NCBI GenBank assembly: GCA_007376635.1
Contig: VMGQ01000006.1
Location: forward strand, 1-34,253
Source: Candidatus Peregrinibacteria bacterium Greene1014_49
GTDB lineage: Bacteria; Patescibacteriota; Gracilibacteria; Peribacterales; Peribacteraceae
Reading direction: 5' to 3'
DNA length: 34,253 nucleotides
Made by a program: the position numbers and the translations under genes. Each line of letters starts with the position of its first letter. Position 1 is the stretch's first letter. Shown here piece by piece: positions 6,492-34,253 of this stretch. Under the pieces are notes generated by a model. It did no database searches and was not told where the DNA came from. It was given only the letters and a program-made list of their open reading frames with translations.

Positions 6492-7349
6492 CTATACTAG
6501 GCTCGTGAGCAGATACACGATTCCCCCGCTGGCGAAGATAATGATGAGGCCGATGCCAACTCTGAGAATGAGTGTTTTTGCTTTCGTGTATTGTTCTTCA
6601 CGTCCGATATTGACGACCATGAGGACACCCGCGTAGACGATCATTCCGAAGGCGATTGCGCCTGCGAAGGCGATGATTTTCGTCACGGTCGAAAGGAGGA
6701 GATTGATTATGTTTGTGGGACTGCCGCTGGCGATTCCCGTTCCGAGAGAGATGCGGGAAAACACGAGAATGAACCCTGCAACAACAAAGAGCACCGTACG
6801 TCGCAGCTGAGCAACACCATCTTCGGATCCAAAATTGGCGATGGCGCGGATCCCGCTGATGATGATCATGATGACGCAGAGGATGCCGAGCGGGACTTCG
6901 AGGAATGCGACGAGCCCCAAGGCTTCCGTTTGAATGTTTGTTGCAGAACCGGTTGGATTGCTGAGAATGGAAGAGCCTCCAGGAGCAAGAGTGGCCGGAT
7001 CAACGCTGAAGGTGTTGGAAATCAGTGACGAGGCGAAGATGCTTGCCAAATTAATCAGTGCAAGTCCCGCAAGACTACTGAGAAATACCCTTCTTGCCAT
7101 CGTCGTTTGCTGTTCATTTCCACTGATTGCCAGGAAGAATCCGGATATCGTCATTGCGAGCAGTGCGGCTCCTGCCACAAGGGGAATAAAACTTTCGGCG
7201 ACGGATTTCACGATGCCACCGAAATTCCCACCGCCCGCGGAAAGTGTGGGACCCACGGCAGCGATTGCACCACTCACATCCATTGCGAGCGCGGAATCTC
7301 CCCAAAGCGTTGCGAGAATGATGCCGGTGAGGAATGCGAGAGAGGTCAT
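6492..7349 (-). CDS. multi-TM protein, VirB2/TrbC (T4SS pilin)-like modules
   Basis: Signal-like N-terminus, then three hydrophobic units: ISGFFLAISGNEQQTTMARRVFLSSLAGLALI..., ISGIRAIANFGSEDGVAQLRRTVLFVVAGFILV..., YAGVLMVVNIGREEQYTKAKTLILRVGIGLIIIF. Confidence 0.65.
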   Translation of the reverse strand: MTSLAFLTGIILATLWGDSALAMDVSGAIAAVGPTLSAGGGNFGGIVKSVAESFIPLVAGAALLAMTISGFFLAISGNEQQTTMARRVFLSSLAGLALINLASIFASSLISNTFSVDPATLAPGGSSILSNPTGSATNIQTEALGLVAFLEVPLGILCVIMIIISGIRAIANFGSEDGVAQLRRTVLFVVAGFILVFSRISLGTGIASGSPTNIINLLLSTVTKIIAFAGAIAFGMIVYAGVLMVVNIGREEQYTKAKTLILRVGIGLIIIFASGGIVYLLTSLV

Positions 7350-8159
7350 TTAGAAGAAGATGCTGAGAATGGTGTACGAGGCCATGACGACAATGATCGC
7401 GACGGCCGTCGTAATGATGATTTTCTTCGATCGATCTTTCAGCTGTTCGTCTCCGGAAACAACAAGGAAGAAGCCGGCAACGACGATGCACGCGACAGAG
7501 AGCGCTCCGAAAATCGTGATAATAAAGCTGCCGATGCCGGTGAGTTCCGTACCGAAGAGTACATTGCTTGGTGCGATAGGAGCACCTGTGATGGAGTCGA
7601 AACCAAATGCATTTACCGCTACGCCTGCAAGGAGCACTGCTGTGAGTCCGATGATTCCCTTGATCAGTCCCTGTCGCGCTGATCCTGCCGCGCTATCATC
7701 TTGTGCGGTAATGAGACGTGCCCCTTGGAAAGCGATGTTGATGGTGAGTGCTGCTCCGACCATGAAAAAGAAGAAGTTCTTCATAGGGACGAGAATACTT
7801 GCGATCATGGATCCAGGGGCTGCCACGGCGGAAGTTGCCGGAACCATTGCCGCAATGAATGAGGCTCCCACAACCAGTACCGCGCCGAAGATTACATGAA
7901 GGTAGGAGTTACGGACTTCCGTCGAAGAGCTTTCATCCGCTCCACTCACCGTGAGTTTCAAGCTGTAGAAAATCAGCACGCCTGTCGCGATGCCTAGTGT
8001 CGCTCCGGCAATCCCTTGGGCTATCTTACCCACGTAGGTGGGGAAGAATGTCGCAGTAGGGCATGGGAAACCTGCAACGGGACATGGATTGAATGCGGCC
8101 GCGGATGCGTGGGTAATGAGTGCCGACGCCAATTCGTTCAGAAGATTGAGAATGGCCAT
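7350..8159 (-). CDS. multi-TM protein, VirB2/TrbC-like modules, paralogue of the 6492 gene
   Basis: Stop TAA abuts next ATG. Units: LKLTVSGADESSSTEVRNSYLHVIFGAVLVV, FQGARLITAQDDSAAGSARQGLIKGIIGLTAVL, AGFFLVVSGDEQLKDRSKKIIITTAVAIIVV. Start 8159 preceded by TGC-TATAAT. Confidence 0.65.
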   Translation of the reverse strand: MAILNLLNELASALITHASAAAFNPCPVAGFPCPTATFFPTYVGKIAQGIAGATLGIATGVLIFYSLKLTVSGADESSSTEVRNSYLHVIFGAVLVVGASFIAAMVPATSAVAAPGSMIASILVPMKNFFFFMVGAALTINIAFQGARLITAQDDSAAGSARQGLIKGIIGLTAVLLAGVAVNAFGFDSITGAPIAPSNVLFGTELTGIGSFIITIFGALSVACIVVAGFFLVVSGDEQLKDRSKKIIITTAVAIIVVMASYTILSIFF

Positions 8160-8335
8160 AATCCAGTCATTATAGCAGAAATGAGCCAAAGCGGGTAGAT
8201 GGAGATATAGGATTAAATGGCTGAATGGCTAAATGGTTAGGTGATGCTTGCGAACCATTTAGCCATGTAACCATTCAACAACCGCCTATTTTCTTTACAT
8301 CTTCCCCCTATTTCCTTACTCTTTCCGCACTTCCT

Positions 8336-15326: not shown

Positions 15327-17198
15327 TTAACTCTCGTAGAACGTGGATTTTACGACGGACGTGGGTATATCGAATCGTAGATGTTCCGTGGAGCCGCCGG
15401 AGCCGAGGCTGAACCAGCGCACATGACTATTGCCTTCTCCTGGACCAAATGCCGTCGTTTGCAGATTGATGTTCTCAAGACTGACCTGTAATTGGGCAGA
15501 TGCGGAACTATTGAGCAAGGGATTGATGACGTTCAGTTCAAGAACGAATGTTTCATATGCTCCCGGATTGATCCGCGTGTTCACGATGGATTCCTGCAGG
15601 TTTTCACATAGGACAAGGAAGAGTCCGGAAATACTGGTTGCTGTGTATGGGGATCCATCGGGATAGAGCGCCTTGCATCTCATATTTGTGGTCTGGTCTG
15701 CCTTGTTGTAGAATCGGACATCGTCTGCAGTGGAAATCACAGTGTTTTTTGCATTCACCGTGAAGAGCAATGTCTCGAGTGCCACATTCCTGCGGGGATG
15801 AAGCGCATCACTGCTTGCCGCGGTGAAGCGGAACTGACCGACTCTACTTTTACCTGTGGGAATGCTCGAATAGTCCCAATCAGGATTGGCGTTCTCCACA
15901 GAAATTATCTTGCCGGAAGTATCTTCCGAAGAACTTGCGGAAGAGGAATGCGACTCTTCTCCGGTAATCACCACGAAGTTGCTGCAGAGAGTTGTGTCAT
16001 TGCCATGACAGAGCTTGATCTCCGCGCCGCGCCGGATCCCCGTTGTATTTGGAAAATCGGAGAGGGCAACCAGGGCTCCAATGTGATTTCCGCTGAGGCA
16101 GGCGAAGTTCGAGCGGTGATTGGCAAAGCCGTTACGCGTATAGACGTGGACACAGGTATCGAAATTTTTTGAGTACTCTACGGAGAACATGGCTCCAGTG
16201 ATGCTTGCGCTATGGAGCACAACGCCTTGTCTTAGTTCTTCTCCTTGTCCTCCATCACCCCCGAACGATCCTCCACCCGCATCATCACTTTCCCCGCCGA
16301 AATCTCCGCCGAGCGTCGGAATGTACACCTTGCATACGTTGTTTGCACACACGTACCCCTGCTTGCTCGTGCATGTTGGCCAGTCGCATCCTTCATGGAA
16401 CAGATCACACGCTTCGCCTCGTTCCAGTATGCCGTTGCCGCAGATCGGTCCTGCCGTACAGGCGCCATCCCTGCATCCGTGGGGGCATATGGTCTGCGCC
16501 ATTGCAATCGTGTTGGATCGCGTGCAGGAGTACTCGTAGAGCATGTTTTCTTCTCCTAGATTTCCGGAGCAAGTATCCGCTGCTGCAAGCGTCTCCCCCG
16601 CATTGGCTTTCGTTTCCCCACGAATTTCGAATCGCTCACCGCCATCACTGTCCTCGCAGAAGTCCCTCGTGCACTGGCTGCAACCGTCACCCGGGATGTC
16701 GTTTCCGTCGTCACATTGCTCTGTACCTTCATCCACAAATCCGTCGCCACACGCGGCGATTTTATTCAGTCCGCTTCTACACGAAAATTGCAACGTTTCC
16801 GAGCTCATCACATAGTACCTCTCTCCTCCTACAATGCGACGGAGTGTGTCCATGCTCCTGTATTGCGGGTGCACGGTGAGTTCTCCTGGGGAGATATAGA
16901 ACGTGCCGATGATGGTCGGTTCTTTTCCGGAGTATTTGTAGACCCAGAAACGAATCACAGTTGCTTTCAGATTTTCTGTAGCCACAGGTGTATCAGTTCC
17001 TGTCGGGCAGATTACAATGTTGTGTTCATCCGCATGGATCGTCACGCCGTTTACAGCTTCCGTTTCGCTATACACATTGATTGGTTGATCGGAAAGTTGT
17101 GCGGGGATTCCCGGTGAGCTCTGAATTCCAGACGTGATCGCGAATGTAGCAATCGTCAGGAATCCTGCAACGGCAATATGCTGTGAACGGGTTGGCAT
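15327..17198 (-). CDS. secreted/surface protein with Myxococcus-type Cys-rich (DUF4215-like) repeats
   Basis: CGDGFVDEGTEQCDDGNDIPGDGCSQCTRDFCED and CGNGILERGEACDLFHEGCDWPTC; signal peptide MPTRSQHIAVAGFLTIATFAITSG. Start moved to 17198 because a TTGCAA-16-TACAAT promoter abuts the upstream ATG. Confidence 0.75.
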   Translation of the reverse strand: MPTRSQHIAVAGFLTIATFAITSGIQSSPGIPAQLSDQPINVYSETEAVNGVTIHADEHNIVICPTGTDTPVATENLKATVIRFWVYKYSGKEPTIIGTFYISPGELTVHPQYRSMDTLRRIVGGERYYVMSSETLQFSCRSGLNKIAACGDGFVDEGTEQCDDGNDIPGDGCSQCTRDFCEDSDGGERFEIRGETKANAGETLAAADTCSGNLGEENMLYEYSCTRSNTIAMAQTICPHGCRDGACTAGPICGNGILERGEACDLFHEGCDWPTCTSKQGYVCANNVCKVYIPTLGGDFGGESDDAGGGSFGGDGGQGEELRQGVVLHSASITGAMFSVEYSKNFDTCVHVYTRNGFANHRSNFACLSGNHIGALVALSDFPNTTGIRRGAEIKLCHGNDTTLCSNFVVITGEESHSSSASSSEDTSGKIISVENANPDWDYSSIPTGKSRVGQFRFTAASSDALHPRRNVALETLLFTVNAKNTVISTADDVRFYNKADQTTNMRCKALYPDGSPYTATSISGLFLVLCENLQESIVNTRINPGAYETFVLELNVINPLLNSSASAQLQVSLENINLQTTAFGPGEGNSHVRWFSLGSGGSTEHLRFDIPTSVVKSTFYES

Positions 17199-17222
17199 AT
17201 AGAGTGTGTGGGTATTGTTCAT

Positions 17223-21973: not shown

Positions 21974-22504
21974 ATGGCGAACTATGCGTTCATCGACAGC
22001 CAGAATGTGCATCTCTCGATTCGCGATCAGGGATGGTCTCTGGATTGGAAGAGATTTCGGCAATATTTGAAAGACAAATACGATGTTGCCAAAGCATTCA
22101 CATTCATTGGATATGTTCCTGGTAATGAAAACCTCTATACGATGCTTGAGCAGTCAGGATTCATCATTGTATTTAAGCCTATATTGAATATCCGATCAGG
22201 TGGTAGAGCTGTTATCAAGGGAAATGTGGATGCTGAGCTTGTACTCCATACGATGATCGAGTGGAATAATTTCGATCGAGCGGTGATTGTGACTGGGGAC
22301 GGAGATTTTTATTGCTTAGTGCGCTATCTGATTCAGAAAAATAAGTTTTCCCGGCTCATTGTCCCTGATAAGAATAAATATTCTCGACTTTTCCATGAGT
22401 TTGCTGAAATCACTACGCCACTGAACGAAATGAAGGAAAAATTAGCAAAAAAAATGAGAGGCATTCCCTCGGGACGAAACCCTTCGGACAGCCTCTCGTC
22501 GTGA
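21974..22504 (+). CDS. NYN domain (LabA/DUF88-like) PIN-fold protein
   Basis: MANYAFIDSQNVHLSIRDQGW...DAELVLHTMIEWNNFDRAVIVTGDGDFYCLVRYL. Confidence 0.88.
   Translation: MANYAFIDSQNVHLSIRDQGWSLDWKRFRQYLKDKYDVAKAFTFIGYVPGNENLYTMLEQSGFIIVFKPILNIRSGGRAVIKGNVDAELVLHTMIEWNNFDRAVIVTGDGDFYCLVRYLIQKNKFSRLIVPDKNKYSRLFHEFAEITTPLNEMKEKLAKKMRGIPSGRNPSDSLSS
22449..22481. repeat. 33-bp perfect direct repeat copy 1 (second copy 22558-22590)
   Basis: aaaaaatgagaggcattccctcgggacgaaacc at both positions. Confidence 0.96.
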
Positions 22505-22591
22505 TGGATTCAGTGTATCAAGAAGGCTCCATATGTAAAGCTGAATATCAAGAAATTAAAAAATGAGAGGCATTCCCTCGGGACGAAACCA

Positions 22592-22857: not shown

Positions 22858-22886
22858 TTGTAATAAACATGAAAAAGTAGTATAAT
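22858..22886 (+). promoter_or_regulatory. promoter TTGTAA-17 bp-TATAAT, 7 nt before ATG 22894
   Basis: ttgtaa 22858-22863, tataat 22881-22886. Confidence 0.75.
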
Positions 22887-22893
22887 AATACAT

Positions 22894-25512
22894 ATGGCAG
22901 TTGATGATCATCAAAAGGTAGATGTTGAGCCGTCTTCAGAAGCAAAGGACGGAGATGTTCTTTCGCAAGTGGGTAATAGTGTTCAGGCATTACGTGCTGC
23001 TGCAGATCAGACCATGCATCCTGTTTTTGAGCGCAAGCCACTAAGCAACCCAACATACTTTGCTGGCGCGGGATACGTCCTTGAAGATTTGCGGCGATTT
23101 GCGTGGAAGTTTGGACAAGGTCGATCGTGCAAAGTGGAGGATCTCACTTACAACAAGGGAAATACTGCCATTGTCGGCTCAGAAATAACGACTGCAGGCG
23201 ATGGAAAAGCTACTGGTCTGGAATACCTAGTGGCAGCTGCGAAGTATTTTGGTTTGCGCGTTGTAAATGAAAATAATCCCTCTGCTACAACGATGAACGA
23301 AGCATTACTCCGTTTAAAAATCCTTGCAGGATGTTCAAATGATGATGTTGCAAGGGCTCATAGAAAAAAGGCGAAAGACCTTCCTACAAGAGAGTCCATT
23401 CTTGCAGATTCTCAACAAGCCTCTTCGGAAAAAAAAGGAAGTACAAATTCTTCTTCCGAAAAAGTATCAGATCCAACTCATCCTGATAAAATCCTCGATG
23501 GCTCTTCTGCACCCTCTGTTCCTTCGGAAAATATATCTCCCTCCGTACGAGTACCTGACCCAGAGTCAGCCTCTGTATCGAATGGAGAGTCTTCAGATAA
23601 TCCTTATCTCTTTCAAGTGGATACCAATGCTGTCGATGGAATTTTAGGGGATACAGGTATTCATGCTCTTGCCGATCCCGCGGGTTCAGACATTACTCTT
23701 GAGCCTGATCCTGCATCGGAAAATTCCACGGCACTTCATGAAAAAGTTTTTTCTCAGCCCAACCCTTCTGAACCAACAGAAACAGTTGATAGCGCCCGCG
23801 ATGATCAGCAAGTTGCTATGCGCGAGATATTGCACACTGATGATCCAGTCGATAAGGAAATTCCGAGCAATTGGTTCACGATTCCGACCCAACTTGAGGA
23901 TTCTCTTATTGTCAGAATGCAAAATAATAAACAAGTACTTTCGCTTGCTGAATTGCGCAAGAGGAATGAGCTTCTGGATAGCGATTTTTGGGTGATTGAT
24001 CCTGATGGGCGCGTGGAACTTGCAGCGAATATCCAATCGCATGGTTTATCTGCCATACACCAGTCAGAACCGTATGCTCTTGTTGATGGCATGGAAAGTA
24101 TCTTCGCGCAGTGGGAACGTACGAGAGAGCAAAGAACAACAGCTGATCCGCTGGTTTCTGAATCGACCAGTGCTAATCATCAGCCGGATAAAGCGGATCT
24201 GGCTACATCCAATGAAGATAGTGATGCACAATCCGCAAATCTTATTGATGATGGGCTTTTCGGTGATGTGACCGAAGAACAACTTCGAGAGCACTGGAAA
24301 ATTCCCGAAGATGCCGACATTATTCCGCGAGAAATGGAGAAAAAAATTCACGTCAAGTATGAAGATGATGACGAGGAAATCGGTAGCTTAGAAAGTTGGA
24401 GATTGAGTCGTGATCTAAAAGATGAAGAACCATTTGTCTTATTTTCCAATGGCAGCGTGCTGCCTGGAAGTATGTGTCGTGAAGGTGGTAATACCTTTGT
24501 GGATATCGTTCCTGCAAATATATCTATGGCTGATTTGCGTAGAGATATACGTGGTACATCAGACGAACCACAAAGTCTTTTGGATTCTGATCCCGGATCA
24601 CTTGATGGGGAACACCAGAGCTCATCGGATCAGCAGAAAAATACACCATCCGCAGAAGCAATTCCTGAAGGATCTTTTGATGATGTAACTCAGGAGTTAC
24701 GAGAGGAATGGAATATTCCCTCTGATTGGCAGCCGGTTCTTCATCGTTGGGAAACCGATTTACGAGTCAATACCAATCAAGGTTCTGGCACGTTGCAAGA
24801 ACTACGGGCTTCATTGCAATTGCCTCCAAACGAGCCATTTTGCATTCATAAACAAGGCAGAGTGAATACTGCAGCAAGTGGTTCACTTTCACAATTTGCA
24901 GTTATTTTAGATCGTGAAAGCTACACCAAATTTCTACATTTATGTCGTAGGGAAAACCCTGCAGCAGATGTTCCACGCAATCCTCCAAATCCTTCCAATG
25001 AACCAGCCTTAGGTGTAACCAAAAAAGAATCACTACCCACTGGATCAAGCACCGACATGAACCCTCCAGCTTCAGCATCGCGCGAAATTTCAGATGAGCA
25101 TCCTCCAGAGACGACAAGTTCTGCACCAGCAGAAAATACTAGACCAGAGACGGCTGATGCTAAGAGAAAAAGAATTATCGAGGAAGGAGCGAACAAAGGA
25201 AAAAATCGCTCCGCCCAACTCTCTGCTTTTTCAAAGAGATCTGTTCCCGCGCGCTCCGCAGAGGAAACAAGAGCACGGTTTGCTGGACGACATGGTGGCA
25301 GGGGACTGTGGTCATCCATGATGACGGGATTGACAAAGAAAGATACGCCGGAGCCAGTGGCGCCAGTACCGGTACCTGCACCTGTAAAGCCGGCAGAAAA
25401 GACTGCTGATTCTAAGGCAAAACCTGGTGCACCTGCTTCCGATACCTCGAAAAAGGCGCTAAAGGCTGAGCAGGACGCTCAGACTCTCAAGGCAATGCAG
25501 CAGACGGAGTAA
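22894..25512 (+). CDS. giant uncharacterised protein A (872 aa) with three copies of an unnamed ~60-aa domain and disordered linkers
   Basis: Long ORF with promoter; repeats IPSNWFTIPTQLEDSLIVRM.../REHWKIPEDADIIPREMEKKIHV.../REEWNIPSDWQPVLHRWETDLRV.... Confidence 0.8.
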   Translation: MAVDDHQKVDVEPSSEAKDGDVLSQVGNSVQALRAAADQTMHPVFERKPLSNPTYFAGAGYVLEDLRRFAWKFGQGRSCKVEDLTYNKGNTAIVGSEITTAGDGKATGLEYLVAAAKYFGLRVVNENNPSATTMNEALLRLKILAGCSNDDVARAHRKKAKDLPTRESILADSQQASSEKKGSTNSSSEKVSDPTHPDKILDGSSAPSVPSENISPSVRVPDPESASVSNGESSDNPYLFQVDTNAVDGILGDTGIHALADPAGSDITLEPDPASENSTALHEKVFSQPNPSEPTETVDSARDDQQVAMREILHTDDPVDKEIPSNWFTIPTQLEDSLIVRMQNNKQVLSLAELRKRNELLDSDFWVIDPDGRVELAANIQSHGLSAIHQSEPYALVDGMESIFAQWERTREQRTTADPLVSESTSANHQPDKADLATSNEDSDAQSANLIDDGLFGDVTEEQLREHWKIPEDADIIPREMEKKIHVKYEDDDEEIGSLESWRLSRDLKDEEPFVLFSNGSVLPGSMCREGGNTFVDIVPANISMADLRRDIRGTSDEPQSLLDSDPGSLDGEHQSSSDQQKNTPSAEAIPEGSFDDVTQELREEWNIPSDWQPVLHRWETDLRVNTNQGSGTLQELRASLQLPPNEPFCIHKQGRVNTAASGSLSQFAVILDRESYTKFLHLCRRENPAADVPRNPPNPSNEPALGVTKKESLPTGSSTDMNPPASASREISDEHPPETTSSAPAENTRPETADAKRKRIIEEGANKGKNRSAQLSAFSKRSVPARSAEETRARFAGRHGGRGLWSSMMTGLTKKDTPEPVAPVPVPAPVKPAEKTADSKAKPGAPASDTSKKALKAEQDAQTLKAMQQTE

Positions 25513-25594
25513 GAAGTTGATATTGGCTTCAGCTAGGGCTCGATCAAATCTTCCACCAAAGGCATTTTTGTGCTAGAATAATAGGATTTATTCT

Positions 25595-28117
25595 ATGCCA
25601 CCCAATAGCCCCAACACCGAGGTCACGCTTGATACAGAAAACCGTGAGGCTGCCGCTCTCAGCGTGCGACAGCAGTGGAACACGCTTCGGCATCTGCTCC
25701 ATCTTCCGAGCATCATTCAGTTGCAAAACAATGCTCAGCAGGAATTGGTCGGCCGACGCATTGTTGCGACGATTGAGCAAGCACGCGGACCAGTTGTCGA
25801 TAACGGCGGTCTTCTTACACAAATATTGACTGATTTCCGTAACGAGAGAGACGCTATCAATCCTTCGACATTAGCAGGTACCAATCTCCGTTCCATGGAG
25901 GAACGAGGTATGGCTATTGCCGAGGCATGGTTGAATGTCATTTACCGGCACATTGAGAGACGTGATGTCGAACAGATGATTGAAGCGTTGCCTGCACAAA
26001 TCAAAACGACTGATGGCCGTCGTAACAGATGGTATGCTGAATGCACAATTGGCGCTAACACGGGCTATATCACTGTTGATCTGAACCATCCGATCTGGCG
26101 TCTTGGAACTGTGGAGCAGATTCGCAGGAGAATTGAAAATGCGACTCCTGCAGAGGCTGGGATTATTTTTGAGCCACCCTTGGTGCCGCCACCAATAATC
26201 ACGACCCCCATAGCGGATGAAGTTTTCCATTCAATGAGAAATGTTGTTTCTCCCACGCTGCCTCTTGCTACGTATACTAATCAGATCCCAGGAGGTCAAC
26301 GGATCATCTTTGATCTACCCGGGCTCATACGAGAACGACCCGTTTTTTCCTTGGATAACGAAGCTGCATTTTCAACGAGGTTGGCAGCTCTTCCTAACTA
26401 TTCGAGATACATCCGTGTTGCTGATGATAACAACGGAAGTCCGCTCAGGATTAATCCGCTGTATATTCCCACTCTCGTCCGCGACCTTTTTGCGAATCTC
26501 AGCCGCTCACCGAATCAACCCTTTGCGGCGGTGACTTCAACTCTCGAAGGTGCAATCAATACACGCCAACCCATTGATCAGCTCATGCAAGGATCAGCCG
26601 ATAGCCGAGAACTCATGCTTGCACTCTCTGCTCTCCAGGCGGATCCAAGTGCTGCAAGAGGATTAATCAACAGTCAAACAGCGGGACTTGATGCTGCGCG
26701 GAATCGTTTCACGAGGGAGAAGAACATTCGTACAGCGTTGACGCAGCTTAGTCAGTTGAAAATCCCAGTTCGTAATGATGCTGCCATTAGAAGGGAATTG
26801 ACGACCACCTTAGCTGCCATGCCAACGATCGCAGCTCAAATTCTAGCGAAACAACAGTCCATCGAGATGCTGCAAAAAGAAATGGACAATTACAGTCAGT
26901 GCGTTGGATTGCTGGGAGAAATACATGCATTATGTGATGGGGTTTCCGTTTTTCATCCGGAAATTGGACCAGGTGGTCGATTGGAAAATATTTATAATTT
27001 TGGACCTGGTATCAGAATGCAACCAACTGCGGTAAACAGGTTTTCCCCGTCGTTGATTGTTAATGAAGTCGAGAGAGCATTCGCAAATATCGCAGATCGG
27101 GATGGTGTGAAAAGCGATACTCTCCATTCCGTCGAGCATTACGATGACCAGCTAAGACAAAATCAAGAGGCGCGGACAGCTGCTGGAACCGAAAGAACCG
27201 GCGACTCCAATGCTTGCTGGCAAGTCATCCGAGCACGTCTCGAAGACCAAGGCATGCGCGGACCGCAGCTCGAAAGCACGCTCCAGTACATGCGTAGCCA
27301 AGTGCAAAAGAGCCCGGAGTCGCAGCGCGATGCCGTGGAACTCACAAACACGCTGTATCATTACGAAGGGGACGAGGATGATCATGCACAGGAACATTGG
27401 GAAGAGGGCAAGCAGCACACTTTTTCCTTCCGTAATAGCATCCGCAATCCGTATGAGACTTATCAGACTGGTCTCCATGGTCTCTTCACCGCGGATGGCA
27501 TCGGCTATTCCTTAGATGAACTTCGTCAATCCCGCAGTCGTAGAATTCCTTTGCCACGCCTTCTCGATGCGTATTTCAGCATGAAGTACCTTTCGGAGGA
27601 AGTTCCGAGTGGAGACCCACGCAGACTTCCGGAGTCTCAAGCGATTACGGGAGTGCTCCGCGCTATGCACCAAGCCATCCTCGATCGCGCAGCAGAGAGC
27701 TTGAGTTCTGCAACGGGCATGAATGAAGCCGAGCAGCGGCAAGTGGGGATCACTCCCGAGATGAGTCTCACGGAGAAATTGCAGCAGGCACAGTCTTTCC
27801 TCACCACCGGAAAGCAGGCGTACATCGCACGGAACAAATATCGCATCGATAAGATTTCGGAGCGTGCCTATGAGCCCATACGTACGGCACTCGAAAATCG
27901 CACGGCATTTTTTGATGCTCTATTTAAAGGAAAGAGATGGTTCACCAATGGCGTGTTGCCATTGGGTGTTCCCTCGAGATTAGTCCGACTGACTGCAACC
28001 AATGTCATTAAGCCTGCAGTCGTCGGCGGCTCTTGGAAGAATCCTGCCGCTTGGATATCTAATACTGTCCAGGGAGGAAGCAAGTTTATCTGGCGCCTCC
28101 TTAATACCGCTGTCTGA
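25595..28117 (+). CDS. giant uncharacterised protein B (840 aa)
   Basis: Long ORF in the same direction; TAGAAT and AGGA upstream; stop is 2 nt from the next ATG. Confidence 0.8.
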   Translation: MPPNSPNTEVTLDTENREAAALSVRQQWNTLRHLLHLPSIIQLQNNAQQELVGRRIVATIEQARGPVVDNGGLLTQILTDFRNERDAINPSTLAGTNLRSMEERGMAIAEAWLNVIYRHIERRDVEQMIEALPAQIKTTDGRRNRWYAECTIGANTGYITVDLNHPIWRLGTVEQIRRRIENATPAEAGIIFEPPLVPPPIITTPIADEVFHSMRNVVSPTLPLATYTNQIPGGQRIIFDLPGLIRERPVFSLDNEAAFSTRLAALPNYSRYIRVADDNNGSPLRINPLYIPTLVRDLFANLSRSPNQPFAAVTSTLEGAINTRQPIDQLMQGSADSRELMLALSALQADPSAARGLINSQTAGLDAARNRFTREKNIRTALTQLSQLKIPVRNDAAIRRELTTTLAAMPTIAAQILAKQQSIEMLQKEMDNYSQCVGLLGEIHALCDGVSVFHPEIGPGGRLENIYNFGPGIRMQPTAVNRFSPSLIVNEVERAFANIADRDGVKSDTLHSVEHYDDQLRQNQEARTAAGTERTGDSNACWQVIRARLEDQGMRGPQLESTLQYMRSQVQKSPESQRDAVELTNTLYHYEGDEDDHAQEHWEEGKQHTFSFRNSIRNPYETYQTGLHGLFTADGIGYSLDELRQSRSRRIPLPRLLDAYFSMKYLSEEVPSGDPRRLPESQAITGVLRAMHQAILDRAAESLSSATGMNEAEQRQVGITPEMSLTEKLQQAQSFLTTGKQAYIARNKYRIDKISERAYEPIRTALENRTAFFDALFKGKRWFTNGVLPLGVPSRLVRLTATNVIKPAVVGGSWKNPAAWISNTVQGGSKFIWRLLNTAV

Positions 28118-28119
28118 TC

Positions 28120-31100
28120 ATGCATATTCCACATCTCTTCCATCGGCATTCCACTTCCATACAAGAGCATAGGCTCTGTGCCTGGGATCCGGAGCACCTT
28201 GGGACAGGTTCTGAAAGTCTCACCAATGCACAGGAAGTTGTAGGGAGCTTTGCTCTTCTTGAGCGCAATGCCGCAATCAAGAAAGCGATGGCACTCTATG
28301 ATGATCCTCTTGTCAGAGGCAGGTTTGCAGAACTTACCAGTAATTCCCTCGATCGTCCGTACGTCCTCACACTGCTTCTTGATGGTATGGTGCGGAATAA
28401 AGATGGCAAACCCATAGAGAAGGGAAAATTTGGATTCACCGATATCCCCGGTTACACCGCCGATCCCGTTGATCCATTCGGGATCTATGCCAAATACAAA
28501 GATACACCTGCAGAACTCGGTACATTCCTCAAATCTTTTGTTTCGCCAGAAGTTCTCCTGCAAATTGATACAAAGGGAGAGAATGCAGAACCTACAGACC
28601 TCGGAAAGAGTTATATTGCAGTCATCGAAAGAGGTCTTGTAAAGAAGGATGCTGACCCCTATCCCAGTACGGTATTCGTCGACGTCAACCTTCTGTGGTA
28701 CCAGCATATTCGCAAGAAACTTCAGGGATCAATGGATCAACGGGGCGTCTCTAGGCCGGATCTTACGAAGGAGTTTCTTGGTGACGATAAAGCAAAACCC
28801 AGACCAAAGCTTACAAAGGTGCAGTATCTTGGGCTTCTCAGAAAGGGAATTCAAAAGAATGATCTTCCAACATTTGCAAGCTCCGAAACAATTCTTCTGG
28901 CCGGACAAGCAGAAGCAGACACCTTACCCAAAAACACCGGCAATCTTTTCACGACGATGACGATCGGGAAATATGGACCGCAGGAGAGCTTGCGCCGTCT
29001 CGATATTCATGTCGGAGATTTTGCGTTGAGCAAGTATTTGGATAAGCGTAGCGGCATTCAGCGTGATGAGAAAACTGGAGCAATTATCCCAGGGGCAAGA
29101 ACCAAGGAGCTGATCGGCTCTGCTACAGAGTGGCGAGGAGATCCGAAGGCTGCATTTGAGTTTCTCTTTGGTAACCCAGATGGAGCCATGTCCGTGAGCG
29201 ATGAAGAAGGTACAAGCAACAGGGTCTTCCGCGATTCCCTTGAATACTGGTTCGTTCCTGATCCTGCAGGGAAGCTTCCAAGAGGTGCCAAGCCTGACAA
29301 GCTTATGTCCAAAGAGGACACCAATGCTGTCTTGTACCTCGTCGTCCAGCAGTTCCTAGCGTACGAAGATCCGAGAAAAAAGACGAATGATCAGCGTGAG
29401 GAGCTCAAGAAAGAAGTTACGCTCACACAAAATCTTGAAGGATTCATGGGCAAAGCTTGGAAATACATGAAGGATTTCGAGAAGCATCCGCTGGGTTCTG
29501 CGTTCATGTGGCTGAGTGCATTCCACGCAGTACGGATCTTGCTTGGAACCCTTAAAGGCAAGCCTAAAATGTGGCAACTTGGTCTCCTTGGAGGAGCTGC
29601 CATTGGGCTCTACCAGCAAGATAGCAAAGGCCGTGCATGGTGGAACGATCTCACTGACAAAGTCACCGGTGCCATCACCAAAGATCAAGCCCTCAATCCA
29701 AAAGATCGCACACTTCCCAATTATTGGCTCCGGGAACTCAAGAAGGTCGAAGGAGAACCCGGAGAATACAACAATCTCACGGAAGACAAAGAGCAGCTCA
29801 TGCTCGCGCTTTCGGGCACTGTGCCCATTCAAGACATGCTTGGGTGGTACCGGAAGTATCAGGCTTTCACCTTGCATCGCGATGGTAACACCATGCCACC
29901 GATTCCCTTTCAATACAGCAAGTTCCGTAATCGTCTGGGTAGCGATGCTGGACCGAAGCACGTGGGGGATTATCTCTATAAAACCCTGCATAAATTCTTC
30001 GTACACCGCGGGCAAGCCGTACAGCAAGAGCATATTCCCTTCGGAATTCCCGGAGGATTTTCTGAGAAAGAAGGGCTGGGGTTTGCGTATATCAAAGATA
30101 AATATATCGAACATCGTTATTACATCCGGCTTATTGAACAGCTGGGGATCCCAAAGGATCTCAAGCTTACTGAACCAGAAATTCAGATGCTCAAAAATGG
30201 TGTGCCAATGACAGCAGAAGAAATTGCAGCCAACCCTAAACTCCAAGCGGAAATGGTTCGCCTAGAAGGCATCGCTCAGCCAGAACGCGATCGCCATATC
30301 AGTGCTCTCCTCTATCTCATACGTCTCTTCGAAATGGAGGGCATCAGCGATAATTCCAGCACGTATTCCATGGATCACGTGTACTTCATGGAGAGCAATA
30401 CGGAGGTTCTCTCGAGAATGCAGAGTGAAGGAGCACTCCCCGCGGGAGCATGGGAAGAATTCCTGGCTTGGTACCGAGGGGGTAATAAGCCTGTAAAGGG
30501 GGTTGCAACGGGAAGTCCTGCAAGCCGTTCTACAGGAAGCACTTATGGAGATAGTGGTACAGGTAGTACTACTCGTGGGGAGGGAGGATCTGGAACTCCC
30601 GAGCGCAGCCCTACGGGCAGCACAACAGAAACATCGACGGGAGATGCCTCGAAAGGACTAACTGCGGATACTACTAAAGGAACTACAGCAGGTACGACCA
30701 ACGATGGCACAGGCAGTCCAGAAAGTCGGACGGCGAGTGCAGCGGAAGTAGGATCGACAGGCAGTGCAGAAAAGGGAAGTGTAAAGGCAGCAACTCGTGG
30801 CCCCTCGGGTGTTCCCGCCGATCGCTTGTCTCCTACTGGACCCGAGCGGCCCCTTGCATCTCCTGCTGCACCTTCCGTTACTGGTCCTGGTGAAGGCGGA
30901 GTTTCTGCAGCAAGGAGTGGAGCTGCAGGAAGTACTGTCGAAACGCCTGTTACGGCTCCGGGTTCTACCTCTACGGGAACGTCATCGAAAACTGAAACTT
31001 CTGGACCGAGTGATCGCGGATCCTCTTCGGGCAATAAGCCATTGGGGAGTCCAGCAGGCGGTGCAGCTGGAGGCGTTTCGGAAGGAGAATCCAGTGCTCC

Positions 31101-31677
31101 AGCGAAGGATGGAACTTCTGGCCCTGGTTCCAAAGAAGTAAGCCCCGCTGCATCTCCTGACGTGTCGGGTACGGTAGGTGGAAGTGCATCTCCCAATCCA
31201 AAGGAGACAGTAGCTCCATCATCCAAATCTACAGGTCCAAGTGGCAGTCGCGAAGTCATGCCATCCACTCGTGAGCCTGTATCCATTGGAGAGAAGGGAA
31301 CAGGTGGCACGGACACTCCATCAACAGGCAGTGTCGAGGCAGGGGATTCCACTGCACCTGGTTCGAAAGATGTTTCTCCAGCGACAAAAGACGGTGTCTC
31401 CTCTCGTCTTCGGGAAACAGGTGGCACGGGAAATAAGTCCGCTGCATCTGTTGAGAGTTCTGAAGTTGCACCCGGTGCTCGTGGCAATAGTTCTTCTTCC
31501 GGTTCTACGGACACAGGTAACGTCGATAAAGGATCGACGGGAAAGGTTGATACCAAGGAGACCTCCGATGCCTCTCGTGATTCCTCCGGAAGAACCAAAC
31601 GACGCGGCGCTCGCTCAAGTGGTTCAAAGGCAACGGGTTCTCCCGGAAGTAGTGGCGTGAGTGGAGTGGAAAAATAA
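28120..31677 (+). CDS. giant uncharacterised protein C (1185 aa), internal hydrophobic segments and ~390-aa S/T/G/P-rich tail
   Basis: GSAFMWLSAFHAVRILLGTLKGKPKMWQLGLLGGAAIGLYQQ hydrophobic region; C-terminal low-complexity tail. Confidence 0.8.
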   Translation: MHIPHLFHRHSTSIQEHRLCAWDPEHLGTGSESLTNAQEVVGSFALLERNAAIKKAMALYDDPLVRGRFAELTSNSLDRPYVLTLLLDGMVRNKDGKPIEKGKFGFTDIPGYTADPVDPFGIYAKYKDTPAELGTFLKSFVSPEVLLQIDTKGENAEPTDLGKSYIAVIERGLVKKDADPYPSTVFVDVNLLWYQHIRKKLQGSMDQRGVSRPDLTKEFLGDDKAKPRPKLTKVQYLGLLRKGIQKNDLPTFASSETILLAGQAEADTLPKNTGNLFTTMTIGKYGPQESLRRLDIHVGDFALSKYLDKRSGIQRDEKTGAIIPGARTKELIGSATEWRGDPKAAFEFLFGNPDGAMSVSDEEGTSNRVFRDSLEYWFVPDPAGKLPRGAKPDKLMSKEDTNAVLYLVVQQFLAYEDPRKKTNDQREELKKEVTLTQNLEGFMGKAWKYMKDFEKHPLGSAFMWLSAFHAVRILLGTLKGKPKMWQLGLLGGAAIGLYQQDSKGRAWWNDLTDKVTGAITKDQALNPKDRTLPNYWLRELKKVEGEPGEYNNLTEDKEQLMLALSGTVPIQDMLGWYRKYQAFTLHRDGNTMPPIPFQYSKFRNRLGSDAGPKHVGDYLYKTLHKFFVHRGQAVQQEHIPFGIPGGFSEKEGLGFAYIKDKYIEHRYYIRLIEQLGIPKDLKLTEPEIQMLKNGVPMTAEEIAANPKLQAEMVRLEGIAQPERDRHISALLYLIRLFEMEGISDNSSTYSMDHVYFMESNTEVLSRMQSEGALPAGAWEEFLAWYRGGNKPVKGVATGSPASRSTGSTYGDSGTGSTTRGEGGSGTPERSPTGSTTETSTGDASKGLTADTTKGTTAGTTNDGTGSPESRTASAAEVGSTGSAEKGSVKAATRGPSGVPADRLSPTGPERPLASPAAPSVTGPGEGGVSAARSGAAGSTVETPVTAPGSTSTGTSSKTETSGPSDRGSSSGNKPLGSPAGGAAGGVSEGESSAPAKDGTSGPGSKEVSPAASPDVSGTVGGSASPNPKETVAPSSKSTGPSGSREVMPSTREPVSIGEKGTGGTDTPSTGSVEAGDSTAPGSKDVSPATKDGVSSRLRETGGTGNKSAASVESSEVAPGARGNSSSSGSTDTGNVDKGSTGKVDTKETSDASRDSSGRTKRRGARSSGSKATGSPGSSGVSGVEK

Positions 31678-31691
31678 TCCTATGCATGTTG

Positions 31692-31722
31692 AAAGCGCGA
31701 TGACGAAAGGTCATCGCGCTTT
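31692..31722. terminator. hairpin AAAGCGCGATGAC-GAAAG-GTCATCGCGCTTT between convergent genes
   Basis: 13-bp perfect stem, 5-nt loop, directly after the protein C stop. Confidence 0.75.
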
Positions 31723-31754: not shown

Positions 31755-32747
31755 CTACGCGTCCGGGTCAGTAGTTGTTTTGTCCGGATCATCCGGATCC
31801 GCCTTTGGGGCGGGGTCGGACTTTGGGTCCGGATCAGCCTTTGGAGCTGGGTCGGACTTTGGTTCCGAATCAACCTTTGGAGGTTCCGAAGAAGTCTCCG
31901 TTTTGGTGGTTTCCTTTTCAGGTTCTTTCATTTTTGATTCAACCGTAGTCAAATCTGAGGAAGATTCCTTCTTAGGAGATTCCACCTTGCGGAAGATGAC
32001 GGCTTCCTCACTGGGACCATTTGATGTTCCATAGAACACCCCAATGCGTTCCCAACGGGGACGATCCTGTTCATCCAAGACGTAGGACGATTTTCCATCA
32101 GCATCCTGATTGATGTGAGTTTTCAAGATGGATTGCCGTTTCACGGGCTCTCCATTCTTGTAGTCCACATTGATGACGACCCAGAGAGCCGTTCCATCCA
32201 TATCCCAGGATACCTTTCCACTCTCGACCGCAGGGGTCGTAGCAGCACTACCTGCTGGAATAGGGGTTGGGTAATCATATTTCAGATTTTCAACCTTGTC
32301 TTCCATCGCAGGCTTGCGACTCGGCACGAGCAATTTCTGGAAGCCCGTGAAGGTTTCCGGCGAAGTTGACGACACCAAGAATGTGGCGAAGAGCAACATC
32401 GAGGAAAGCACCAACTCCACGCATCCAAACCATTCTGTGTTGGTTTCTTCCGAGTCTTTGATGCGGGAGATCGCGTTCACGATTCCCGTAAGACCAACGA
32501 TGAACCAACACAAGCTGGTGCAGACTTTTGCAAACCCGAAGCCGAAGCTTGGGGTGTGCAACCACTCCGAGAAGCTGGAGAAGCCGATCCCAAAGGCTGG
32601 GATCGCAATCCCCAGCATGAGGAAGACAATCCAAGCCCAAGACAGGACTTGTGGGGGCACCTCCAGTCGCTTCGCCTTGTGGCCATGACTTGCGCCATGA
32701 TCAGCAACCACATCACTACCAGTCGAACCATGAGTCGTGTCGGCCAT
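31755..32747 (-). CDS. membrane protein with about four TM helices and P-K-[AS]-D-P repeat tail
   Basis: MADTTHGSTGSD... start preceded by AAGGAG; hydrophobic helices; tail DPAPKADPDPKSDPAPKADPDDPDK. Confidence 0.7.
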   Translation of the reverse strand: MADTTHGSTGSDVVADHGASHGHKAKRLEVPPQVLSWAWIVFLMLGIAIPAFGIGFSSFSEWLHTPSFGFGFAKVCTSLCWFIVGLTGIVNAISRIKDSEETNTEWFGCVELVLSSMLLFATFLVSSTSPETFTGFQKLLVPSRKPAMEDKVENLKYDYPTPIPAGSAATTPAVESGKVSWDMDGTALWVVINVDYKNGEPVKRQSILKTHINQDADGKSSYVLDEQDRPRWERIGVFYGTSNGPSEEAVIFRKVESPKKESSSDLTTVESKMKEPEKETTKTETSSEPPKVDSEPKSDPAPKADPDPKSDPAPKADPDDPDKTTTDPDA

Positions 32748-32828
32748 TGCAGAAACTCCTTGTGCGAGATTGATCACTTTGACAGGGGTGATCGTGACCC
32801 TTTTTGTTGCCGAAGATTTGTAAGAGCA

Positions 32829-32861
32829 ACTACTATAATTATAAAACAAATGTATAGTAGT
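32829..32861. promoter_or_regulatory. operator-like inverted repeat ACTACTATA-15 nt-TATAGTAGT around AT-rich promoter region
   Basis: Perfect 9-bp arms upstream of the 32747 minus-strand start, overlapping a minus-strand TTTTATAAT. Confidence 0.5.
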
Positions 32862-32950
32862 GTCTATCTCAAAAACGCCTAAAATAGGCCAAAAGAGGTC
32901 GCGGGGGGACAGAGTACCGCGACTTGAGAAATGAGCATTCTGAAGCTTTT

Positions 32951-33490
32951 CTACGGCACGAGGCCGTAGATCAGCCGCCCTGTTGAGGGGCATCGGTACC
33001 ACTCGTAATGCGGTCGCACGAACGGCACGAAGACCGGTGTGGGGTTTACCACGACAGGTGTCGGCGTCACCGTGATCGGGGTCGGGTTGACCTCGATTTT
33101 TGGTGTCACGGTGACTGGTGTGGGATTCACCACGATGTTGGGTGAAACCGTGACCGGCGTGGGATTCACTTGAATGATCGGTGCTGTCGTCTTCGTTTCG
33201 GTTGTGACTCGGGTGTGGAAGTGCGTCTTCGTGTAGGCCCCTGAAACGGCGGCCGTGTTTGCTCGGAGGGTACCGAGGGCATTATCCACCGTGGCGCGGT
33301 AGTGCGGAAGTGCCTTGTCGGCCACTCCGATGCGGACACGGATGCCTGGGACTTTCTGCGTGACTTTCGCCACGCCTTCCCACTCGACGATTCCAGATGC
33401 GTCACCGATCTGGATTTCGTAGACATCATCACAGACGCCATTCGCGCACAATGCGAAGATCACAAGCAAGCTGGAAAGCAGTTGTCGCAT
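32951..33490 (-). CDS. secreted protein with NPTPVTV repeats
   Basis: Signal peptide MRQLLSSLLVIFALCANGVCDD; repeats VNPTPVTVSPNIVVNPTPVTVTPKIEVNPTPITVTPTPVVVNPTPVFV; GAGGAG upstream. Confidence 0.7.
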   Translation of the reverse strand: MRQLLSSLLVIFALCANGVCDDVYEIQIGDASGIVEWEGVAKVTQKVPGIRVRIGVADKALPHYRATVDNALGTLRANTAAVSGAYTKTHFHTRVTTETKTTAPIIQVNPTPVTVSPNIVVNPTPVTVTPKIEVNPTPITVTPTPVVVNPTPVFVPFVRPHYEWYRCPSTGRLIYGLVP

Positions 33491-34045: not shown

Positions 34046-34253
34046 ATATCTTCATCGATGCCAATTTGCCTCGCTCTCTGACGTCCGTCCTTGGCCAGTT
34101 CGGGGAAGTATTTCATGCATTGGATACCGTGGCTCCCGGGGCATCAGATAATGCGATTGCCGCAGAAGCGACCAAGCGTAAAGCTATCCTTTTTACACGA
34201 GATCTTGATTTTGTGAACCCGCATCTCTTTCCAGAGATAGCAGGTGCTGGCCT
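34042..34253 (+). CDS. DUF5615 PIN-like toxin-like protein (3' truncated by window)
   Basis: ATGA overlap with DUF433 gene; MNIFIDANLPRSLTSVLGQFGEVFHALDTVAPGASDNAIAAEATKRKAILFTRDLDFVN. Confidence 0.85.
   Translation, partial: MNIFIDANLPRSLTSVLGQFGEVFHALDTVAPGASDNAIAAEATKRKAILFTRDLDFVNPHLFPEIAGAG

What the first reader, a model, noticed from the sequence alone, without database searches (positions are those of the whole stretch)
22894..31677. ~9 kb cluster of three giant uncharacterised proteins under one strong promoter
Genes A (872 aa), B (840 aa) and C (1185 aa) run co-directionally from a near-consensus promoter (22858-22886) to a hairpin (31692-31722); B and C are 2 nt apart. I recognise no known family. 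A has disordered linkers with repeat domains, B is helical with a hydrophobic C-terminus, C has an internal membrane-like segment and a long S/T/G/P-rich tail. This is the best candidate for an undescribed multi-protein assembly, perhaps envelope-associated.
Basis: inference. Interest (0 to 1): 0.75.

Follow-up and report, generated by a model that had tools for sequence, protein, structure and literature searches.

The report
Giant proteins sharing a start tag
In a poorly known group of tiny bacteria (Peribacteria), a fast-changing block of giant proteins of no known family includes one that carries a short start tag found on dozens of otherwise unrelated proteins, usually made together with a small acidic partner, which suggests an undescribed system for sorting or exporting proteins.

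Summary
The three ORFs exist as described, and none matches Pfam, NCBIfam, PHROGs, PADLOC or the PDB. The genome is a Peribacteria (Patescibacteria) draft. "One promoter" fails: B has its own short-leader promoter, repeated before B genes of relatives. B and C form the stable operon (C within -35..+10 nt of B in 13 of 18 relatives; a ~120-aa acidic gene between them in 4). A is recognisable in only four genomes. The block lies between RNase Y/LTD and carA, diverges fast, and C's history conflicts with RNase Y's (AU p=4e-9).

Across 24 C proteins (some ~13% identical) the best-conserved columns are M1, E16, R18, L19 and C20: an N-terminal ExRLC tag. An ExRL tag also starts 73 of 107 proteins encoded directly after a ~110-aa acidic protein, s110 (3 of 243 ordinary ORFs; p=1e-44). 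Tagged proteins form 59 unrelated clusters. s110 is in 68 of 74 genomes of this family and was not found elsewhere in the phylum. The window's block very probably continues on another contig with s110 and a 2,477-aa tagged giant. I read the tag as a docking, possibly export, signal with chaperone-like partners. Export is not shown.

The parts
22858..22886 (+). promoter-like site before A (TTGTAA-17-TATAAT); ATG 7 nt downstream, almost leaderless
   Evidence: a consensus match only
22894..25512 (+). A, 872 aa, acidic (pI 4.8), disordered linkers with repeated ~60-aa segments; homologues in 4 genomes, position often taken by unrelated proteins
25571..25579 (+). extended -10 of B (TGCTAGAAT), separate B-C promoter
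   Evidence: similar box before nearly all B relatives
25595..28117 (+). B, 840 aa, helical, conserved NP..xPARxVKGxW-like C-terminal motif; 18 homologues, 17 followed by C
28120..31677 (+). C, 1185 aa, tagged giant; 24 homologues at the same locus, core shared with two further giant groups
28165..28179 (+). codons of the E16-H-R-L-C20 N-terminal tag of C
   Evidence: best-conserved columns of 24 C proteins; for the same tag on s110 partners
29488..29622 (+). moderately hydrophobic hairpin of C (residues 457-501), conserved HPxGS...GxY...GxAWW
30478..31674 (+). S/T/G/P/A-rich tail of C (399 residues: S 20%, G 19%, T 13%); present in some relatives, replaced by ordinary sequence in others
31692..31722 (.). 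perfect 13-bp inverted repeat between convergent C and D, probable two-way terminator
31755..33002 (-). D, convergent protein with 3 hydrophobic segments and an FYGTSNGPS motif; the true start is probably inside this ORF. D-type relatives follow C in four other genomes
   Evidence: (cluster 12)

Best explanation
The cluster is a hypervariable Peribacteria locus built around a tagged giant protein. C begins with a short docking signal (about 15 residues, then E-x-R-L-C), followed by a flexible linker and a long lineage-specific body. The tag is a sorting signal shared by dozens of otherwise unrelated large proteins of these bacteria, most of which are encoded directly after, and often translationally coupled to, a small acidic partner (s110; the unrelated s120 before C in some genera). 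I propose that the small partner is a dedicated chaperone or adaptor that holds the N-terminus and hands the protein to a common receptor, most likely for export to or through the envelope towards other cells. B, which sits directly before C, would be the co-produced partner of C, and A a replaceable accessory. Shown: the tag, its N-terminal position and protein-level conservation, the pairing with s110, the diversity of the bodies, the B-C linkage, and the conflicting histories of C and RNase Y. Inferred: binding of the tag by the small partner, a common receptor, and export.
For: M1, E16, R18, L19, C20 are the best-conserved columns of 24 C proteins. Of 107 s110 genes, 73 are followed by a strict ExRL N-terminus and 90 by a looser form, against 3 and 15 of 243 ordinary ORFs; Fisher p=1e-44 and 2e-49; 1.7% in internal windows and 2.2% in shuffled N-termini of the same proteins. 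The 90 tagged proteins fall into 59 unrelated clusters after removal of 40 residues. All six Arg and all six Leu codons are used at the motif, so selection is on protein, not DNA. Many pairs overlap by 4 nt. s110 and s120 are acidic (pI 4.1-5.5) and unrelated to each other. Some tagged bodies carry J, InPase-type or DUF4116 domains. s110 is in 68 of 74 family genomes and only in this family among 384 genomes of the phylum. The window's own locus very probably continues with s110 and a 2,477-aa tagged giant before carA.
Against: No experiment, no structure of a complex, no secretion machine linked: the type IV secretion ATPase is in all 20 genomes tested, with or without s110. In the window C is preceded by B, not by s110. 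17 of 107 s110 neighbours lack even the loose motif, although a few show near variants. G018 has C but no s110.
Confidence: 0.5

Rival explanations
1. Cytoplasmic docking: the ExRL tag recruits diverse large proteins to one internal structure (a compartment, a cytoskeleton-like or membrane-attached scaffold), as N-terminal encapsulation peptides do for microcompartment cargo; nothing is exported. B and C would be scaffold parts.
For: No signal peptides seen; C has only a weak hydrophobic hairpin; one tagged protein ends in a J domain, which would suit work inside a cell; no secretion machine is linked.
Against: No shell or scaffold gene is known to accompany the tags. Rapid change and exchange of the locus fit contact with other organisms better than an internal structure.
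Confidence: 0.25
2. Defence or mobile-element conflict locus: the giants are anti-phage or inter-element proteins exchanged between lineages, and the tag recruits them to a shared sensor.
For: C tree conflicts with RNase Y tree; small toxin-antitoxin-like genes seem to lie beside the giants (family names from memory); one tagged protein has an InPase-type domain of a sort I recall from polyvalent phage proteins.
Against: No PADLOC and no significant PHROG hits; the site is fixed between core genes in most genomes; best viral structure match E=0.2. The viral contig scans gave no answer, so this is not excluded.
Confidence: 0.1
3. Lineage-specific giant proteins without a common function; the N-terminal motif only helps translation start or coupling with the upstream gene.
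For: Many pairs overlap by 4 nt, a sign of translational coupling.
Against: The motif is conserved in amino acids with free codon choice, lies 12-18 residues after the start, and is kept in C proteins that follow B or s120 instead of s110.
Confidence: 0.1

Closest known systems
Type III secretion chaperone-effector gene pairs (e.g. BtcA-BteA, PMC3846842)
   Same: Small acidic protein encoded directly before a large protein whose N-terminus carries the signal; effector bodies unrelated to each other
   Different: s110 and s120 match no known chaperone family; no type III machine is known to me in Patescibacteria (not tested here); a strict short sequence motif is not typical of type III signals (own knowledge)
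Polymorphic toxin systems (PMC3482391)
   Same: Conserved N-terminal trafficking part with very diverse bodies; fast exchange
   Different: No recognised toxin domain and no immunity gene identified; the tag is a short motif rather than a domain
Type IV secretion system of Patescibacteria (PMC12102498; essential in one epibiont, PMC10633639)
   Same: Present in the genomes tested, cargo unknown, so a candidate export route; pilin-like genes lie in the window at 6492-8189
   Different: No linkage or co-occurrence between it and the tag system; it remains in genomes without s110
Large exported proteins of Ca. Peribacter riflensis (PMC4736985)
   Same: Same lineage; that paper stresses many large exported proteins
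   Different: Those are described as exported and often cysteine-rich; A, B and C lack signal peptides; no tag or s110 is mentioned in the passages found
N-terminal encapsulation peptides of bacterial microcompartments (own knowledge)
   Same: Short N-terminal signal on unrelated proteins
   Different: No shell genes seen in the locus; a partner gene accompanies most tagged proteins

Membership tests
Type III secretion chaperone-effector pair | Small acidic protein (about 100-150 aa) encoded next to the substrate | tested here: met
   s110 pI 4.3-5.5, s120 pI 4.1-5.1, directly upstream
Type III secretion chaperone-effector pair | Small protein belongs to a known chaperone family | tested here: not met
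   two s110 members against Pfam, seven against NCBIfam, and the profile against PDB sequences: nothing over a cut-off; best was BamD model at E=5e-4 for one member, far below its cut-off
Type III secretion chaperone-effector pair | Small protein binds the N-terminus of the substrate | not testable with these tools
   no complex prediction available
Type III secretion chaperone-effector pair | Type III secretion machine in the genome | not tested
   not searched
Polymorphic toxin system | Shared N-terminal trafficking region with diverse bodies | tested here: met
   shared motif, 59 unrelated clusters
Polymorphic toxin system | Recognisable C-terminal toxin domains | tested here: not met
   about 70 tagged proteins scanned; J domain, InPase-type and DUF4116 only
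Polymorphic toxin system | Immunity gene directly downstream | not tested
   downstream genes not examined systematically
Type IV secretion substrates | Co-occurrence with the secretion ATPase | tested here: inconclusive
   VirB4-type ATPase in all 20 genomes, including those without s110
Known anti-phage defence systems | Match to a PADLOC model | tested here: not met
   none for A, B, C
   B promoter conserved; A in 4 genomes, B in 18, C in 24

The most novel reading that the evidence does not exclude
Peribacteria use a previously undescribed, lineage-specific targeting pathway in which an N-terminal ExRL tag and dedicated small acidic chaperones send giant, fast-evolving effectors, C among them, out of the cell to the cells they live with.
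Probability: 0.35. Interest if true: 0.9.

Novelty: categorically new. Interest (0 to 1): 0.72.

Why it matters
How Patescibacteria act on their hosts is largely open: their type IV secretion system is widespread and was essential in one epibiont, yet its cargo is unknown (PMC12102498, PMC10633639). A short tag that marks dozens of unrelated giant proteins in one lineage, most of them with a small partner gene, gives a direct handle: it predicts which proteins belong together, can be searched for by sequence, and can be tested by simple binding and localisation experiments. It also gives a first functional clue for proteins that no family library covers.

Tried and rejected
Family searches in Pfam, NCBIfam, PHROGs, PADLOC and PDB sequences: nothing for A, B, C. 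AlphaFold2 with 7 sequences: C core mean pLDDT 67, B 57; Foldseek of C against PDB and viral models: nothing; B was not searched because its model is poor. DUF5663, a weak hit for the s120 of G017, was searched in 20 genomes: no match over the cut-off, so dropped. s110 and s120 compared by profile: unrelated. T4SS co-occurrence: present everywhere tested, uninformative. Viral-contig scans for s110 and C failed for technical reasons, so a viral link is not excluded. A lipobox reading of 'RLC' was rejected: no hydrophobic stretch precedes the Cys. The idea that the motif is a DNA or RNA element was rejected by codon variation. HExxH in the 2,477-aa giant: no peptidase family found, left open. 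A 26-bp direct repeat before A occurs only twice in the genome, so it is a local duplication and not a repeat family.

Full report
WHAT THE WINDOW IS. The window is contig C7 (34,253 bp) of a 1.36-Mb draft genome, 96% complete. Relatives carrying C are named Candidatus Peribacteria, Peribacter or Peregrinibacteria; one named contig has the same length (58,844 bp) as the matching contig of G001, a genome of the window's own genus. So this is a Peribacteria genome (Patescibacteria).

CHECK OF THE OBSERVATION. A, B and C are as described in position, size and orientation, with a perfect 13-bp hairpin after C. They are real genes: in G021 (another genus) B is 36% and C 38% identical over nearly full length, in the same order. 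No family library and no structure search recognises them, with the caveat that the models are of modest (C, pLDDT 67) or poor (B, 57) quality.

PROMOTERS. A's -10 lies 7 nt before its ATG. B has a separate extended -10 (TGCTAGAAT), and almost every B relative has a similar box, TTTTTTGnTATAATA, a short distance before the ATG. C starts within -35..+10 nt of the B stop in 13 genomes. So there are probably two transcription units, A and B-C. RNA evidence is lacking.

THE LOCUS ACROSS THE FAMILY. I anchored on RNase Y in 74 family genomes and read the neighbouring region in about 40. The order is RNase Y, LTD protein, variable block, then carA where the contig reaches that far. By clustering, the C family has 24 members, B 18 and A only 4. 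Giants of about 1,700-2,000 aa in six other genomes, and a third group of three, share C's core by profile comparison (probabilities 73.9% and 96.8%). Three small genomes (G012, G009, G247) have no block: LTD is followed directly by carA or its neighbour, and they also lack s110; they may represent a single loss. RNase Y puts the window with G001-G003 (99% support), but the C tree rejects a window-G001-G004 clade (AU p=3.6e-9); the window's C is 40% identical to that of G272 and 22% to that of its genus mate G001. B and C types are combined freely: B of G017 and G251 resembles the window's B at about 30% while their C is only 13-14% identical. The block therefore diverges fast and has been exchanged or differentially retained.

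THE TAG. Reading the N-termini showed a repeated E-x-R-L near residue 15. In the alignment of 24 C proteins, M1, E16, R18 and L19 are the top columns and C20 is close behind. The same motif appeared on other giants in the same loci, often preceded by a ~110-aa protein, s110. A profile of s110 finds it in 68 of 74 family genomes, 1-5 copies each; among 384 genomes of the phylum only members of this family match at E<=1e-5. Of 107 non-redundant s110 genes with enough sequence, 73 are followed by a protein with strict ExRL and 90 with the looser form in the first 50 residues. Controls: 3 and 15 of 243 ordinary ORFs, 1.7% of internal windows of the same proteins and 2.2% of shuffled N-termini. The looser form was chosen after seeing variants such as ERRM and ERRE, so the strict count is the one to trust. 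Many start codons are fixed by a 4-nt overlap with s110. All six Arg and all six Leu codons are used. With 40 N-terminal residues removed, the 90 tagged proteins still form 59 clusters without detectable similarity. Because related genomes were sampled, the 107 pairs are not all independent events; the 59 clusters are a better guide to independence.

THE WINDOW'S OWN PAIRS. G000 has three s110 genes, followed by tagged proteins of 450, 2,477 and 537 aa. The 2,477-aa one lies on contig C25. The window ends inside a small gene whose remainder appears at the start of reversed C25, judged by the intact relative in G001; C25 then has an antitoxin-like gene, s110, the giant, and carA. The window's block is therefore very probably larger than the finding: A, B, C, D, small genes, s110, a fourth giant, carA.

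DOMAINS. Most tagged proteins match nothing. Exceptions over the Pfam cut-off are a C-terminal J domain, an InPase-type domain and DUF4116; a tachylectin-like hit is below its cut-off. The 2,477-aa giant has HELMH near its end, without a family match.

INTERPRETATION. A short N-terminal motif shared by unrelated, mostly large, fast-evolving proteins, most of them coupled to a small acidic protein, is best explained as a docking signal with a dedicated partner. In the window B sits where the small partner would be; in four genomes a second, unrelated acidic ~120-aa protein lies between B and C. Export is the most likely purpose given the lifestyle of Patescibacteria and the rapid change of the locus, but it is inference: no machine is linked, and the type IV secretion ATPase is present with and without s110. 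Docking to an internal structure remains a serious rival.

COMPARISON. It works like chaperone-effector pairs of type III secretion and partly like polymorphic toxins, but fails tested defining features of both (no known chaperone family; no toxin domain). The open papers on Peribacteria and on Patescibacteria secretion that I could search do not mention the tag or s110 in the passages found; most subscription papers were not searchable. I call it categorically new because no component has a known relative, while the proposed principle, a partner plus an N-terminal signal, is known.

Noticed in passing
L161:7117-14547 (-), contig C25 of the same genome: 2,477-aa tagged giant with repeated ~70-aa segments and an HELMH sequence (residue 2334) that may mark a metalloprotease; no family match. 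Probably the next large gene of the window's own locus.
   Followed up: partly
window 34047-34253 and the end of L161: A small toxin-like gene is cut by the contig break; its two halves are on the window and on contig C25, which suggests the contigs are neighbours.
   Followed up: partly
window 6492-8189 (-): Two type IV secretion pilin-like proteins (PF18895, E=8e-16 and 2e-10).
   Followed up: no
window 22455-22590: A 26-bp direct repeat (GAGAGGCATTCCCTCGGGACGAAACC), two copies about 110 bp apart at the end of the NYN gene; its 21-bp core occurs nowhere else in the genome.
   Followed up: yes
L067, L071, L074 (G012, G247, G009): Three 0.8-0.9 Mb genomes lack both the giant block and all s110 genes but keep the T4SS ATPase.
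   Followed up: partly
L043, L045, L054, L057, L068, L073 and others: Proteins encoded just before C-type giants often end in His-rich tails such as ...GHH...GH or ...AH; no explanation.
   Followed up: no
L060, L068, L072, L044, L053, L055: Alternative giants of about 1,700-2,000 aa at the same locus share C's core after an ~850-aa N-terminal extension; some start with an ExRL tag.
   Followed up: partly
window 15327-17222 (-): 631-aa protein with a cysteine-rich DUF4215 repeat, as reported for Ca. Peribacter surface proteins.
   Followed up: no
L180:5071-5871 and L176:9011-12526: Tagged proteins with known C-terminal domains: an InPase-type domain and a J domain.
   Followed up: no
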